A stretch of 39,346 nucleotides of DNA from Chloroflexota bacterium (GTDB lineage: Bacteria > Chloroflexota > Limnocylindria > Limnocylindrales > CSP1-4). Shown here piece by piece: positions 23,477 to 26,159 of this stretch (position 1 is its first letter; every line of letters begins with the position of its first letter). Below the pieces are notes generated by a model that was given only the letters and a program-made list of their open reading frames with translations, did not search any database and was not told the origin of the DNA. The stretch lies in NCBI GenBank assembly GCA_021786265.1, contig JAJYNP010000181.1:1-39346 (forward strand), in the 5' to 3' direction. A program made the position numbers and the translations under genes.

Positions 23477-24463
23477 ATGACCCCGCGGCGGCGCGGGAGC
23501 CCCGCCCGCGGGAATCCGTCTCTCGCGAACCCGGCCCCGGCGCCGCCCCGGACGCGCGTCCCCAACCCGGACCGCGAGCTGGTCGCCGCGGTCCGCGCCG
23601 AGCTGGCGGCGATCGAACCGACCCGCGAGTGCTGCCGATCCGCGGAACGGATGGGGCTGGGCAGCGCGGCGACCGGCGAGGCTCACTCTGCGGCCGTCGC
23701 GCGGCTGGCCGTGCGCCTCGGGCCGGCGCCGGACTCCTCCTCCCCGGAGGCGCCGCCCTCGTTCGATTGGGCCGGTGCGGCGGATCACTGCCGGATGGCA
23801 TGGCTGCGCGGCACGTTCCTGGCCCACGGGTCCCTGAGTCTCGGGTTCGCGCGTACGCACCTCGAGTTCGTGGTGGCCCCCGCGGATGCGCCGGAGCTCG
23901 CGCGGCGGCTGGCATCGCTGGGCCTGCCGGCCGCAGTCCGGCTGCGGCGGGGGAGGGGCGTGCTCACCTGGAAGAGCGGCGAGCGCGTGGCGGCGTTCCT
24001 GCGCGAGATCGGGGCAGGGCCGTCGTTGCTCGAGTTGGAGGCCAGGGGGGTCGCGCGGATCCTGCGCGGGGAACTGAACCGGCTCCTCAACGCCGAGGCC
24101 GCCAATCTCGAACGCTCGGTGGGCGCGTCCGCCCGGCAGCTCGAGGCAATCGTGCGCCTCCAGGGTGACGGGCGGCTTGCCGCCGAACGAGAGGCGGTCC
24201 GGGTGGTCGCCCGCGCGCGGCTGCGGGATCCCGACGCGACGCTGGGCGAGCTGGCGGCGGAGCTGGGCGTGACGCGCTCGTCGGTGCAGCGGGCGCTCGA
24301 ACGGATCGAGCGGCTGGCACTGCACCCGCTGGACGGTGACCTGCCGCTGCGCGCCGGCTCCCGGCGCAGCGCGAAGCCTGCGGGCGGTGCGCGCGTCCCG
24401 ATGCGGCTCGACGCGGGCAATGCCCCATTCGGCCCGGTACGCGAACGCCTCGTGCCGGGATAA
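23477..24463 (+). CDS. whiA: DNA-binding regulator WhiA
   Basis: WhiA is a transcription factor, essential for sporulation septation in Streptomyces and linked to cell division and nucleoid behaviour in Bacillus. The 328-aa protein has an N-terminal LAGLIDADG-homing-endonuclease-like domain without catalytic residues (RMAWLRGTFLAHGSLSL near residue 98). A C-terminal helix-turn-helix follows (LGELAAELGVTRSSVQRALERIERLA, residues ~255-280). The last ~45 residues are an unstructured basic tail. That tail is encoded over the tpiA control region: its stop codon TAA is part of the tpiA GATAAT box. The ATG follows GGAGGG. No sporulation genes are seen nearby. Confidence 0.93.
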   Translation: MTPRRRGSPARGNPSLANPAPAPPRTRVPNPDRELVAAVRAELAAIEPTRECCRSAERMGLGSAATGEAHSAAVARLAVRLGPAPDSSSPEAPPSFDWAGAADHCRMAWLRGTFLAHGSLSLGFARTHLEFVVAPADAPELARRLASLGLPAAVRLRRGRGVLTWKSGERVAAFLREIGAGPSLLELEARGVARILRGELNRLLNAEAANLERSVGASARQLEAIVRLQGDGRLAAEREAVRVVARARLRDPDATLGELAAELGVTRSSVQRALERIERLALHPLDGDLPLRAGSRRSAKPAGGARVPMRLDAGNAPFGPVRERLVPG

Positions 24464-24464
24464 T
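24422..24464 (+). promoter_or_regulatory. tpiA promoter with an element shared with gpmA
   Basis: GCCCCATTCGGCCCGG (24422-24437), then 21 bases, then GATAAT (24459-24464), then six bases to the tpiA ATG. The same 16-mer, 21-base gap, GATAAT and six-base gap occur upstream of gpmA on the other strand. The 16-mer would sit at about -34 to -50, where an activator or a group-specific sigma contact would lie. There is no Shine-Dalgarno. The element is inside the whiA 3' coding end. Confidence 0.6.
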
Positions 24465-24470
24465 CGCGGC

Positions 24471-25265
24471 ATGCGACCGATCATCATTGCCGCCAACTGG
24501 AAGATGAACACCACCCCGGCCGACGCTGGCCCGCTGGCCTCCGCCATCGCCGCGGCCACGGCCACGGACGACGTCGTGCGCGTGATCTGTCCGCCGTACG
24601 TCTGCCTGGCACCGGTGCGCGACGCCCTGGCCGGCACCGGGATCGCGGTGGGTGCCCAGGACGTGCACCCGCTGGCCGCCGGGGCGTACACGGGCGAGAT
24701 CAGCGCCGGCATGCTCGCCGGGCTGGCGAGCTGGTGCATCGTCGGGCACTCGGAGCGCCGGCGCGACCAGCACGAGACGGACGAGCTGATCGGCCGCAAG
24801 CTGGCACGCTGCCTTGAGTCGGGCCTGCGCCCGATCTGGTGCGTCGGCGAGCAGCTCGACGAGCGCGAGGCCGGACGCGCCGAGGCGGTCGTCCGCGAGC
24901 AGGTGGGGCGGGCGCTCCTGGCGGGCGGCCTGTCGAACGGCGACTGGGCCGGGTCGGTGGTGATCGCCTACGAGCCGGTCTGGGCGATCGGCACCGGCCG
25001 CACGGCGCGTGGCGCGGACGCGGCCGCCATGGCAGACGCCATCCGGGCCGCGCTCGAGGCGAACGGGTGGACACGCGACGCGGTGGCGGCCGTGCCGATC
25101 CTCTACGGCGGCAGCGTGACCGCGGCCAGCATCGGCGAGTTCCTCGCGGAGCCGGCCATCGACGGTGCGCTGGTCGGAGGGGCGAGCCTGAAGCCGGACG
25201 AGATGGCCGGGATCGTGGCGCGGGCCACGACGACGGCAGCCGCGAGGCGGGCCGCGGCGGGATAG
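24471..25265 (+). CDS. tpiA: Triose-phosphate isomerase
   Basis: TpiA interconverts dihydroxyacetone phosphate and glyceraldehyde 3-phosphate in glycolysis and gluconeogenesis, in the cytosol. At 264 aa it is close to the usual 250. All catalytic landmarks are present: AANWKMN near residue 8 (Lys), CIVGHSERR near residue 90 (His), and the base and mobile loop AYEPVWAIGTG near residue 165. The phosphate-binding ILYGGSVT and GALVGGASL close the barrel. The ATG at 24471 lies seven bases after the whiA stop with no ribosome site, so it is likely read from a leaderless transcript starting at its own promoter. gpmA converges on it after 32 bases. Confidence 0.96.
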   Translation: MRPIIIAANWKMNTTPADAGPLASAIAAATATDDVVRVICPPYVCLAPVRDALAGTGIAVGAQDVHPLAAGAYTGEISAGMLAGLASWCIVGHSERRRDQHETDELIGRKLARCLESGLRPIWCVGEQLDEREAGRAEAVVREQVGRALLAGGLSNGDWAGSVVIAYEPVWAIGTGRTARGADAAAMADAIRAALEANGWTRDAVAAVPILYGGSVTAASIGEFLAEPAIDGALVGGASLKPDEMAGIVARATTTAAARRAAAG

Positions 25266-25277
25266 TCCGCCCGCGAA

Positions 25278-25333
25278 CGTGCCCTGCGCCGCGACCGTCA
25301 GCCCTGCGGCCTGGCCGTGCCCTGCGCCGCGAC
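25278..25333 (+). repeat. 18-base direct repeat, 38 bp apart, at the 3' end of gpmA
   Basis: CGTGCCCTGCGCCGCGAC occurs at 25278-25295 (between tpiA and gpmA) and at 25316-25333 (inside the gpmA 3' coding end). It looks like a 38-bp local duplication that has partly decayed. Confidence 0.8.
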
Positions 25334-26110
25334 GGCCGCGGCGGCGGCGGCGATCCTGTCGGGGTCTCCCAGGTAGAAGTGCCTGACCGGTCGCAGGTCG
25401 GCGTCCAGGTCATACACGAGCGGCACCCCGGTCGGGATGTTGAGGCCCACGATCGCCTCGTCGGACATCTGGTCCAGGTACTTCACCAGCGCACGCAGGC
25501 TGTTTCCATGCGCCACGATCAGCACGCGCTTCGCAGACCGGACGACCGGAGCGATCTCCGCATGCCAGTAGGGGAGGAACCGTGCGACGGTGTTCACCAG
25601 GGCCTCGCACCGGGGCAGGTCGGCGGGGGCGACGTCCGCGTAGCGCGGATCTCGTCCGGGAAACCGAGGATCGTCGAGATCGAGCGGCGGCGGCGGCACG
25701 TCGTAGCTCCGCCGCCAGAGGCGCACCTGCTCCTCGCCGTACTGTTCCGCGGTCTGGGCCTTGTTCAGACCCTGCAGCGCGCCGTAATGGCGCTCGTTCA
25801 GGCGCCACGACTTGGTGACGGGGATCCACATCAGGTCGAGCTCCTCGAGCGCGATCCAGAGCGTGCGGATCGCGCGCTTGAGCACGGAGGTGAACGCCAC
25901 GTCGAACCCGTATCTGCCCTCTCGCAGCAGGCGTCCGGCCTCGTGCGCCTCCGCAACGCCCTTGTCGGACAGGTCGACGTCCGTCCATCCGGTGTAGAGG
26001 TTCTCCCGGTTCCACGTGCTCTCGCCATGACGGAGGAGCACGACACGGTGGGTCGCGCCGTTCGCCAGGGCCGGTTCCGGGAGGGCGGTGTTGATCGAGT
26101 TCGGTTCCAT
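25298..26110 (-). CDS. gpmA: 2,3-bisphosphoglycerate-dependent phosphoglycerate mutase
   Basis: GpmA interconverts 3- and 2-phosphoglycerate through a phospho-histidine. The 270-aa protein carries VVLLRHGESTWN near residue 23 (phosphorylated His), ENLYTGWTDVDLS, the substrate loop LNERHYGALQGLNK near residue 105, VLIVAHGNSLRALVKYLD near residue 200 (second His) and TGVPLVYDLD. It has about 20 extra residues at each end: an N-terminal lead and an Ala/Gln-rich C-terminal tail that includes a repeated DNA segment. The ATG at 26110 has no Shine-Dalgarno and lies six bases after GATAAT. It converges on tpiA and is divergent from secG. Confidence 0.95.
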   Translation of the reverse strand: MEPNSINTALPEPALANGATHRVVLLRHGESTWNRENLYTGWTDVDLSDKGVAEAHEAGRLLREGRYGFDVAFTSVLKRAIRTLWIALEELDLMWIPVTKSWRLNERHYGALQGLNKAQTAEQYGEEQVRLWRRSYDVPPPPLDLDDPRFPGRDPRYADVAPADLPRCEALVNTVARFLPYWHAEIAPVVRSAKRVLIVAHGNSLRALVKYLDQMSDEAIVGLNIPTGVPLVYDLDADLRPVRHFYLGDPDRIAAAAAAVAAQGTARPQG

Positions 26111-26116
26111 GGCGGC

Positions 26117-26159
26117 ATTATCCCGGCGCGCCCGTCTGGTGTCCCGGGCCGAATGGGGC
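26117..26159 (-). promoter_or_regulatory. gpmA promoter with an element shared with tpiA
   Basis: Read on the minus strand: GCCCCATTCGGCCCGG (26159 down to 26144), 21 bases, GATAAT (26122 to 26117), six bases, ATG. The layout and 16-mer are identical to tpiA, and the five bases before GATAAT (GCCGG) also match. The rest of the 21-base gap differs, which argues for constraint on the boxes over a very recent copy. Confidence 0.6.

What the first reader, a model, noticed from the sequence alone, without database searches (positions are those of the whole stretch)
24422..26159. Identical promoter-proximal element and spacing in front of tpiA and gpmA
On opposite strands, both genes have GCCCCATTCGGCCCGG, then 21 nt, GATAAT, six nt and ATG. 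The 16-mer, gap lengths and GATAAT are identical, and the five bases before GATAAT also match. The rest of the spacer differs. One copy sits inside whiA coding sequence, the other between gpmA and secG. Chance seems very unlikely. It suggests a shared regulator, or a promoter class for central carbon genes read as leaderless mRNAs; whiA and yvcK next door are attractive but unproven links.
Basis: partly seen in the sequence, partly recalled or inferred. Interest (0 to 1): 0.72.

Follow-up and report, generated by a model that had tools for sequence, protein, structure and literature searches.

The report
Shared control switch of two sugar-burning genes
Two sugar-breakdown genes in a group of uncultured bacteria carry the same short DNA switch at the same distance from their starts, and comparison with relatives suggests that the switch keeps the two genes working together after they were separated.

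Summary
The bare 16-mer repeat is weak evidence in this 70.7% GC window (19 such pairs; simulations 4.95), but geometry and phylogeny are strong. Of 177 genomes of a Chloroflexota class, seven hold the promoter pattern, always before tpiA. A loose version in eight clade genomes gives 14 hits: 8 tpiA, 4 gpmA, 2 other, no backward-control hits. Inside whiA, two wobble A's stay fixed while the amino acids change, so DNA is selected; the whiA stop lies inside the -10 box. Outside the clade, 53 of 59 tpiA promoters read have an extended -10, and the mutase gene follows tpiA in 24 of 24 loci. In the clade gpmA faces tpiA, TG is gone, and the element overlaps a poor -35, centred at -41.5. Best reading: a clade-specific operator, probably for an activator, on leaderless promoters, keeping tpiA and gpmA co-regulated after their operon was split. 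Against: the gpmA copy is variable and missing in the two closest relatives. It is a two-gene module, not a central-carbon promoter class. The binding protein is unknown (SorC/CggR-like unlikely, WhiA possible). No expression data.

The parts
24422..24437 (+). 16-mer element GCCCCATTCGGCCCGG before tpiA, inside the 3' end of whiA; -49 to -34 if the A of ATG is +1 (centre -41.5)
   Evidence: CATTCGGCCC before tpiA in 7 clade genomes
24436..24441 (+). position of a -35 hexamer: GGTACG, 17 nt before the -10; overlaps the 16-mer
   Evidence: GNAC kept in 9 of 9 aligned tpiA rows
24459..24464 (+). -10 box GATAAT of tpiA; its TAA (24461-24463) is the stop codon of whiA
24471..25265 (+). tpiA, triose-phosphate isomerase, predicted leaderless
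   Evidence: TIGR00419 180.1 bits, cut-off 130.6
23477..24463 (+). whiA; its C-terminal tail ends in APFGPVRERLVPG*, which spells the tpiA promoter
26144..26159 (-). 16-mer element before gpmA, intergenic (divergent secG)
26140..26145 (-). position of a -35 hexamer: GGGACA, 17 nt before the -10
26117..26122 (-). -10 box GATAAT of gpmA
25298..26110 (-). gpmA, 2,3-bisphosphoglycerate-dependent phosphoglycerate mutase, convergent to tpiA, with an N-terminal extension of about 20 residues that starts at the predicted leaderless ATG
   Evidence: two best models begin at residues 21 and 22
26319..26540 (+). secG with GGAGG before its TTG start: a leadered-looking neighbour, in contrast to tpiA and gpmA
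   Evidence: TIGR00810 47.5 bits, cut-off 30.85; sequence

Best explanation
The 16-mer (conserved core CATTCGGCCC, then mostly GG, then NAC) is a clade-specific operator that overlaps the -35 region of two leaderless sigma-70-type promoters (GATAAT, six or seven nt, ATG). A regulator bound at about -42, most likely an activator contacting RNA polymerase in the class II manner, drives tpiA and gpmA together. In related lineages the mutase gene (gpmA or gpmI) lies right behind tpiA and would be co-transcribed, mostly from an extended -10 promoter. In this clade gpmA became inverted, the tpiA promoter lacks the TG extension, and both genes carry the same operator-promoter module, so that co-regulation was kept. 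Shown: sequence, geometry, conservation, DNA-level constraint, gene order. Inferred: transcription start at the ATG, binding of a protein, activation, co-regulation. Unknown: which protein.
For: Specificity: CCATTCGGCCCGG-N22-ATAAT with up to 1 mismatch is in 7 of 177 class genomes, 8 sites, 0 backward controls, all 6-7 nt before tpiA. The 20-base version with up to 3 mismatches in 21 genomes gives 10 sites: 8 tpiA, 1 gpmA (G065), 1 other (G070:C5). In 400 phylum genomes with up to 2 mismatches 4 hit: two are tpiA of this clade; the other two have 2 mismatches and no ATG 5-8 nt behind the box. Loose module in 8 clade genomes: 14 hits, 8 tpiA + 4 gpmA + 2 other, 0 controls. DNA-level selection: in 9 aligned tpiA promoters inside whiA one codon is CCA/TCA/GCA (P/S/A) and another GTA/GCA/GGA (V/A/G): amino acids vary, wobble A is fixed 9 of 9, although A ends 3.2% of 2711 codons in seven window frames (within their boxes CCA 1.4%, TCA 1.3%, GCA 5.8%, GTA 0.8%, GGA 10.4%). 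19 of the 21 best WhiA hits (own protein included) end in [FC]GP + 6 residues + [PT]G. Rewiring: of 59 non-clade tpiA promoters read 57 have a -10 box and 53 of these TGN before it; 0 of 9 tpiA and 0 of 8 gpmA rows of the clade have TGN, and 0 of 17 have TTG 15-19 nt before the -10, while the clade's sorC promoter has TTGNNN 16-18 nt before TAGANT in 6 of 6. Gene order: tpiA and mutase gene co-directional in 24 of 24 non-clade loci L160-L183, convergent in 6 of 6 clade loci L154-L159. Clade gpmA is one group in the tree (100/99).
Against: The gpmA copy is less conserved: exact in the window, one mismatch in G066 and in G067 (both with a 22-nt gap), altered in G065 and G070, decayed in G071, absent in G068 and G072, the closest relatives, which keep AATAAT-6-ATG and also lack TG and TTG. 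So the element is not needed for gpmA everywhere, and a promoter of this kind may do without any of the usual aids. GATAAT and missing TG also occur in two non-clade genomes, G061 and G063. The core is not palindromic, unlike most dimeric operators (recalled). No protein partner was found, and a two-gene regulon is small.
Confidence: 0.6

Rival explanations
1. The element is an unusual extended -35 read by RNA polymerase itself through an alternative sigma factor (GGNAC resembles the GGAAC of ECF sigma promoters, recalled), with no separate regulator.
For: Element and GNAC form one block ending at about -31; in G066 and G067 gpmA the block shifts as a unit to a 22-nt gap.
Against: The -10 GATAAT is sigma-70-like; in 8 clade genomes 12 of 14 module hits are just two genes, few for a sigma regulon; the far part (CATTCGGCCC, -47 to -38) lies upstream of the usual -35 contact zone.
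Confidence: 0.15
2. The element is a repressor operator covering the -35.
For: It overlaps -35, so a bound protein would block polymerase equally well; GATAAT is a good match to TATAAT; G068 and G072 gpmA do without the element.
Against: The 17 clade promoters read lack both TTG at -35 and TG before -10, so without help they look weak, which fits activation better.
Confidence: 0.15
3. WhiA, encoded by the overlapping gene, is the protein that binds the element, through its helix-turn-helix and perhaps its LAGLIDADG-like domain. This names the binding protein and is compatible with the best explanation, so its odds overlap with it.
For: Streptomyces WhiA binds GACAC as a monomer and also a target with GACGC (PMC3781837, passages seen); window gpmA has GGGACACC, and G067, G070 and G071 gpmA have GACGC at the same place. 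An asymmetric site suits a monomer. The end of whiA contains the tpiA promoter in the clade.
Against: At tpiA the same place reads TACGC, CACGG, TACAG, TACGG or GACGG, not GACAC; GAC is also part of a normal -35; WhiA was found in sequences far beyond the clade while the element was not.
Confidence: 0.12
4. Ordinary constitutive promoter whose conservation comes from the WhiA C-terminal peptide and from chance at gpmA.
For: The element is coding in whiA; a bare 16-mer repeat is not rare in this window.
Against: Wobble bases are fixed where amino acids vary; the gpmA copy is not in whiA; the loose module recurs at gpmA in four relatives.
Confidence: 0.03

Closest known systems
Class II activator-dependent sigma-70 promoters (e.g. 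CRP at -41.5; recalled)
   Same: Site centred at -41.5, overlapping -35; poor -35 hexamer; normal -10
   Different: Non-palindromic element; no activator identified; leaderless-looking start
Leaderless (TA-led) bacterial genes, Zheng et al. 2011 (PMC3160421, passages seen)
   Same: -10-like signal about 12 bp before the start codon, no Shine-Dalgarno
   Different: Here an extra upstream element is shared by just two genes
CggR/SorC control of glycolytic genes including tpiA and pgm in Bacillus (recalled)
   Same: Same pathway; a SorC-family gene precedes class II fba in this clade
   Different: That gene's own promoter carries TGAGCA-NN-TGATC, not this element
WhiA regulon of Streptomyces (PMC3781837, passages seen)
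   Same: WhiA is the overlapping gene; GACAC or GACGC at some gpmA copies
   Different: Motif not kept at tpiA; two-gene set; no binding data

Membership tests
Leaderless (TA-led) gene | -10-like box about 10-12 bp before the start codon | tested here: met
   GATAAT six nt before ATG at both genes; 57 of 59 non-clade tpiA promoters read have a .AT..T box 6-8 nt before the start
Leaderless (TA-led) gene | No Shine-Dalgarno before the start | tested here: met
   GATAATCGCGGCATG and GATAATGCCGCCATG hold none (by eye)
Leaderless (TA-led) gene | Transcript begins at the start codon | not testable with these tools
   No transcript data
Class II activator-dependent promoter | Activator site centred near -41.5 overlapping -35 | tested here: met
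   16-mer spans -49 to -34 if ATG is +1; position only, and it depends on the assumed start
Class II activator-dependent promoter | Weak -35 hexamer | tested here: met
   GGTACG/GGGACA; no TTG in 17 of 17 clade promoters; sorC promoter control has TTG in 6 of 6
Class II activator-dependent promoter | An activator protein binds and stimulates | not testable with these tools
   No protein identified
Extended -10 promoter | TGN directly before the -10 hexamer | tested here: not met
   0 of 9 tpiA and 0 of 8 gpmA rows of the clade; 53 of 57 boxes outside the clade have it
CggR/SorC operator | Same operator at the regulator's own promoter and its targets | tested here: not met
   sorC-fba promoter has TGAGCA-NN-TGATC in 6 of 6 clade loci; no TTCGGCCCGGNAC with up to 2 mismatches in the up to 260 bp before the helix-turn-helix in the 7 loci read
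WhiA target | GACAC (or GACGC) motif in the promoter | tested here: inconclusive
   At gpmA: GACAC in the window, GACGC in G067, G070, G071; not at tpiA
OmpR/PhoB-type direct-repeat site | Two conserved half-sites about one helical turn apart replacing -35 (recalled) | tested here: not met
   GCCC-N6-GCCC in the window, but the first half is not conserved in the clade (columns 0-3 vary)

The most novel reading that the evidence does not exclude
The tpiA-gpmA operon of this clade was split by an inversion, or by an inverted duplication with loss of the inner copies, and the promoter-operator module came to stand at both outer ends. WhiA, whose gene's tail contains the tpiA promoter and whose stop codon is part of its -10 box, would be the direct regulator of the two enzymes, linking cell-cycle or nucleoid control to glycolysis.
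Probability: 0.08. Interest if true: 0.68.

Novelty: new member of a known kind. Interest (0 to 1): 0.42.

Why it matters
It gives a clean natural example of regulatory rewiring: a gene pair changes from operon order to convergent order while a shared operator is present and the extended -10 common elsewhere in the class is absent. It also offers a ready bait of about 50 bp to fish out an unknown glycolytic regulator of an uncultured Chloroflexota group. It shows too that the tail of one protein (WhiA) can be written by the promoter of the next gene.

Tried and rejected
SorC/CggR-like regulator as the binding protein: PF04198 was found in 13 of 16 genomes, in 6 of 8 clade genomes, there directly before a class II aldolase-like gene (aldolase confirmed for one of them, G066, by PF01116, 260.7 bits). 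Its own promoter carries another motif. Disfavoured, not excluded.

A class-wide common core (GGGCCGAA or its complement, seen also in G031/G033/G034, G032 and G039): lineage-wise 8-mer counts did not exceed shuffles (best 8-mer 8 lineages, GGGCCGAA 6; shuffle maximum mean 5.69, max 8). For GGGCCGAA alone 0 of 500 shuffles reached the observed 5 lineages outside the window's, but two of those five (G065/G070, G066) are the clade itself, and the best of the nine element 8-mers reached 5 in 34 of 500. Not established. A first clustering lumped 54 rows together and was discarded. The lineage-specific blocks seen by eye were not followed further.

Element without the -10: CATTCGGCCCGGNAC with up to 2 mismatches is common in 12 of 12 genomes, in clade and non-clade alike, and in most genomes more common than its backward control (only part of the rows is listed). 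With up to 1 mismatch 8 clade genomes hold 29 sites. I gave 21 of the 29; the other 8 are tpiA (7) and gpmA of G067 (1) by position. Of the 21, 2 are gpmA and tpiA of G066; of the other 19, 15 lie in coding-like frames and none shows GATAAT in the 55 nt printed. Two of the 19 are exact copies (G068:C371, G070:C9).

One WhiA relative outside the counted group, P0037, has NAPFGPVR near its end without the PG; not followed up.

Known RNA: no Rfam family at gathering score in 23000-27000. The string CATTCGGCCCGG is in no paper of the held library. Operon splitting in print: search listing only, nothing used.
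Full report
WHAT IS THERE. The description is exact. Both genes have GCCCCATTCGGCCCGG, 21 nt ending in GCCGG, GATAAT, six nt, ATG. tpiA is on the plus strand; its element lies inside the end of whiA. gpmA is on the minus strand, convergent to tpiA; its element lies in the gap to the divergent secG. NCBIfam confirms tpiA, dPGM, WhiA, YvcK and RapZ and secG.

CHANCE. The window is 70.7% GC, and exact 16-mer repeats are common: 19 maximal pairs, against a mean of 4.95 (max 9) in 20 simulated windows. 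The 16-mer alone would not have convinced me. But ATAAT occurs just twice in 39 kb on both strands, at these two places, and relatives repeat the pattern.

RELATIVES. No whole genome is held for the window. TpiA led to a Chloroflexi MAG (BP4.bin83, 66% identity), used as G001. Its class, which the tool does not name, has 177 genomes in the search; I take it to be Ca. Limnocylindria (formerly Ellin6529) from recall and from the GC and size figures of PMC10608941 (passages seen), not from a test. CCATTCGGCCCGG-N22-ATAAT with up to one mismatch is in 7 of 177 (G065-G071; 8 sites, no backward-control hits). All 8 sites are 6-7 nt before the ATG of tpiA. Six of these seven are the six genomes with the most similar TpiA (82-94%; the next listed have 72-73%), so the group does not rest on the element alone. 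Among 400 phylum genomes 4 hit with up to two mismatches: two are tpiA of this clade, the other two have no ATG 5-8 nt behind the box. The loose form TTCGGC-N22..30-ATAAT in eight clade genomes gives 14 hits: 8 tpiA, 4 gpmA, 2 other, 0 controls. So the module marks two genes, not a wide set.

DNA, NOT PEPTIDE. In the six clade loci read, the whiA frame runs through the tpiA promoter and ends 7-8 nt before the tpiA start; the TAA of GATAAT is its stop. Of the 120 WhiA relatives listed, 19 of the best 21 (own protein included) end in [FC]GP, six residues, [PT]G, while the linker before that varies; none of the other 99 fits that pattern, though P0037 has APFGPVR without the PG. Codons settle the cause: one is CCA, TCA or GCA and another GTA, GCA or GGA. 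Amino acids change, the wobble A stays in 9 of 9. A ends 3.2% of 2711 codons in seven window frames; within their own boxes CCA is 1.4%, TCA 1.3%, GCA 5.8%, GTA 0.8% and GGA 10.4%. The nine rows are related, so this is not nine independent events.

gpmA. gpmA was found in 7 of the 8 genomes G065-G072, all but G069. The element is exact in the window, has one mismatch in G066 (CATTCGGCCCGCGAC) and in G067 (CGTTCGGCCCGGGAC), both with a 22-nt gap, is altered in G065 and G070 (CGTTCGGCGC), decayed in G071 and absent in G068 and G072, where the gap to secG looks shorter (by eye). All 8 rows keep (G/A)ATAAT and an ATG six or seven nt on. The best NCBIfam models begin at residues 21 and 22 of GpmA, and RHGES lies at residue index 26, 28, 32 or 34 in the 8 rows: the extension varies by whole codons, as expected if translation starts at the leaderless ATG.

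ARCHITECTURE. With the A of ATG as +1 (assumed), GATAAT is at -12 to -7, the -35 slot holds GGTACG (tpiA) or GGGACA (gpmA) with a 17-nt spacer, and the 16-mer spans -49 to -34, centre -41.5. Outside the clade, tpiA promoters also look leaderless but differ: 57 of 59 read have a box, mostly CATGAT (29) or CATCAT (19), and 53 of the 57 have TGN before it, an extended -10; two others have GATAAT without TG. In the clade 0 of 9 tpiA and 0 of 8 gpmA rows have TGN, and none of the 17 has TTG 15-19 nt before the -10, while the sorC promoter of the same clade has TTGNNN 16-18 nt before TAGANT in 6 of 6. So these promoters lack both usual aids, which points to an activator at the element. Against that, G068 and G072 gpmA lack the element as well.

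GENE ORDER. Of the 30 tpiA loci L154-L183, the 24 outside the clade have gpmA (6) or gpmI (18) behind tpiA in the same direction; the 6 clade loci have gpmA facing tpiA (genes recognised by motifs). The clade's gpmA, with the window 8 rows, forms one group (100/99; in G072 the facing order is assumed). One event at the base of the clade could have turned gpmA round. An inverted duplication of the promoter-tpiA-gpmA unit with loss of the inner copies would place the same promoter at both ends; this is conjecture, since spacers and flanks have diverged.

WHICH PROTEIN. A SorC-family gene before class II fba looked good because CggR controls these enzymes in Bacillus (recalled). Its own promoter holds TGAGCA-NN-TGATC (G019: TGAGCATATGCTCA) and not the element, so I think it unlikely. 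WhiA binds GACAC and also a GACGC-bearing target in Streptomyces (PMC3781837, passages). Window gpmA has GACAC and three relatives have GACGC there, but tpiA does not. WhiA stays possible. A class-wide core motif was not established.

VERDICT. A real, conserved, DNA-selected promoter module, firm at tpiA and variable at gpmA, in one Chloroflexota clade; probably a regulator's operator; regulator unknown. Mechanism inferred, not shown.

Noticed in passing
L236-L238, L240-L242 (clade) and L243 (G019): A SorC-family regulator gene directly before a class II aldolase-like gene, with TGAGCA-NN-TGATC (perfect TGAGCATATGCTCA in G019) behind the -10: a likely autoregulated sorC-fba operon.
   Followed up: partly
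tpiA upstream of G036-G055, G018-G021, G031/G033/G034: Other lineages of the class seem to have their own conserved blocks near the -35 of tpiA, e.g. around GGGGCCGA and ATTGGTCCGTACCA (by eye); the promoter may have been rewired several times.
   Followed up: partly
L160-L183: The mutase gene behind tpiA is gpmI in 18 and gpmA in 6 of 24 non-clade loci, a non-homologous replacement at the same place.
   Followed up: no
window 10581: uvrC-like gene (name from its sequence, recalled) with TAGCAT six nt before GTG, another possible leaderless start.
   Followed up: no
window 25278 and 25316; 10118, 10156, 10194; 10493 and 10531: Further exact 16-mer direct repeats in the window, these at 38-nt steps; not at the promoters.
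   Followed up: no
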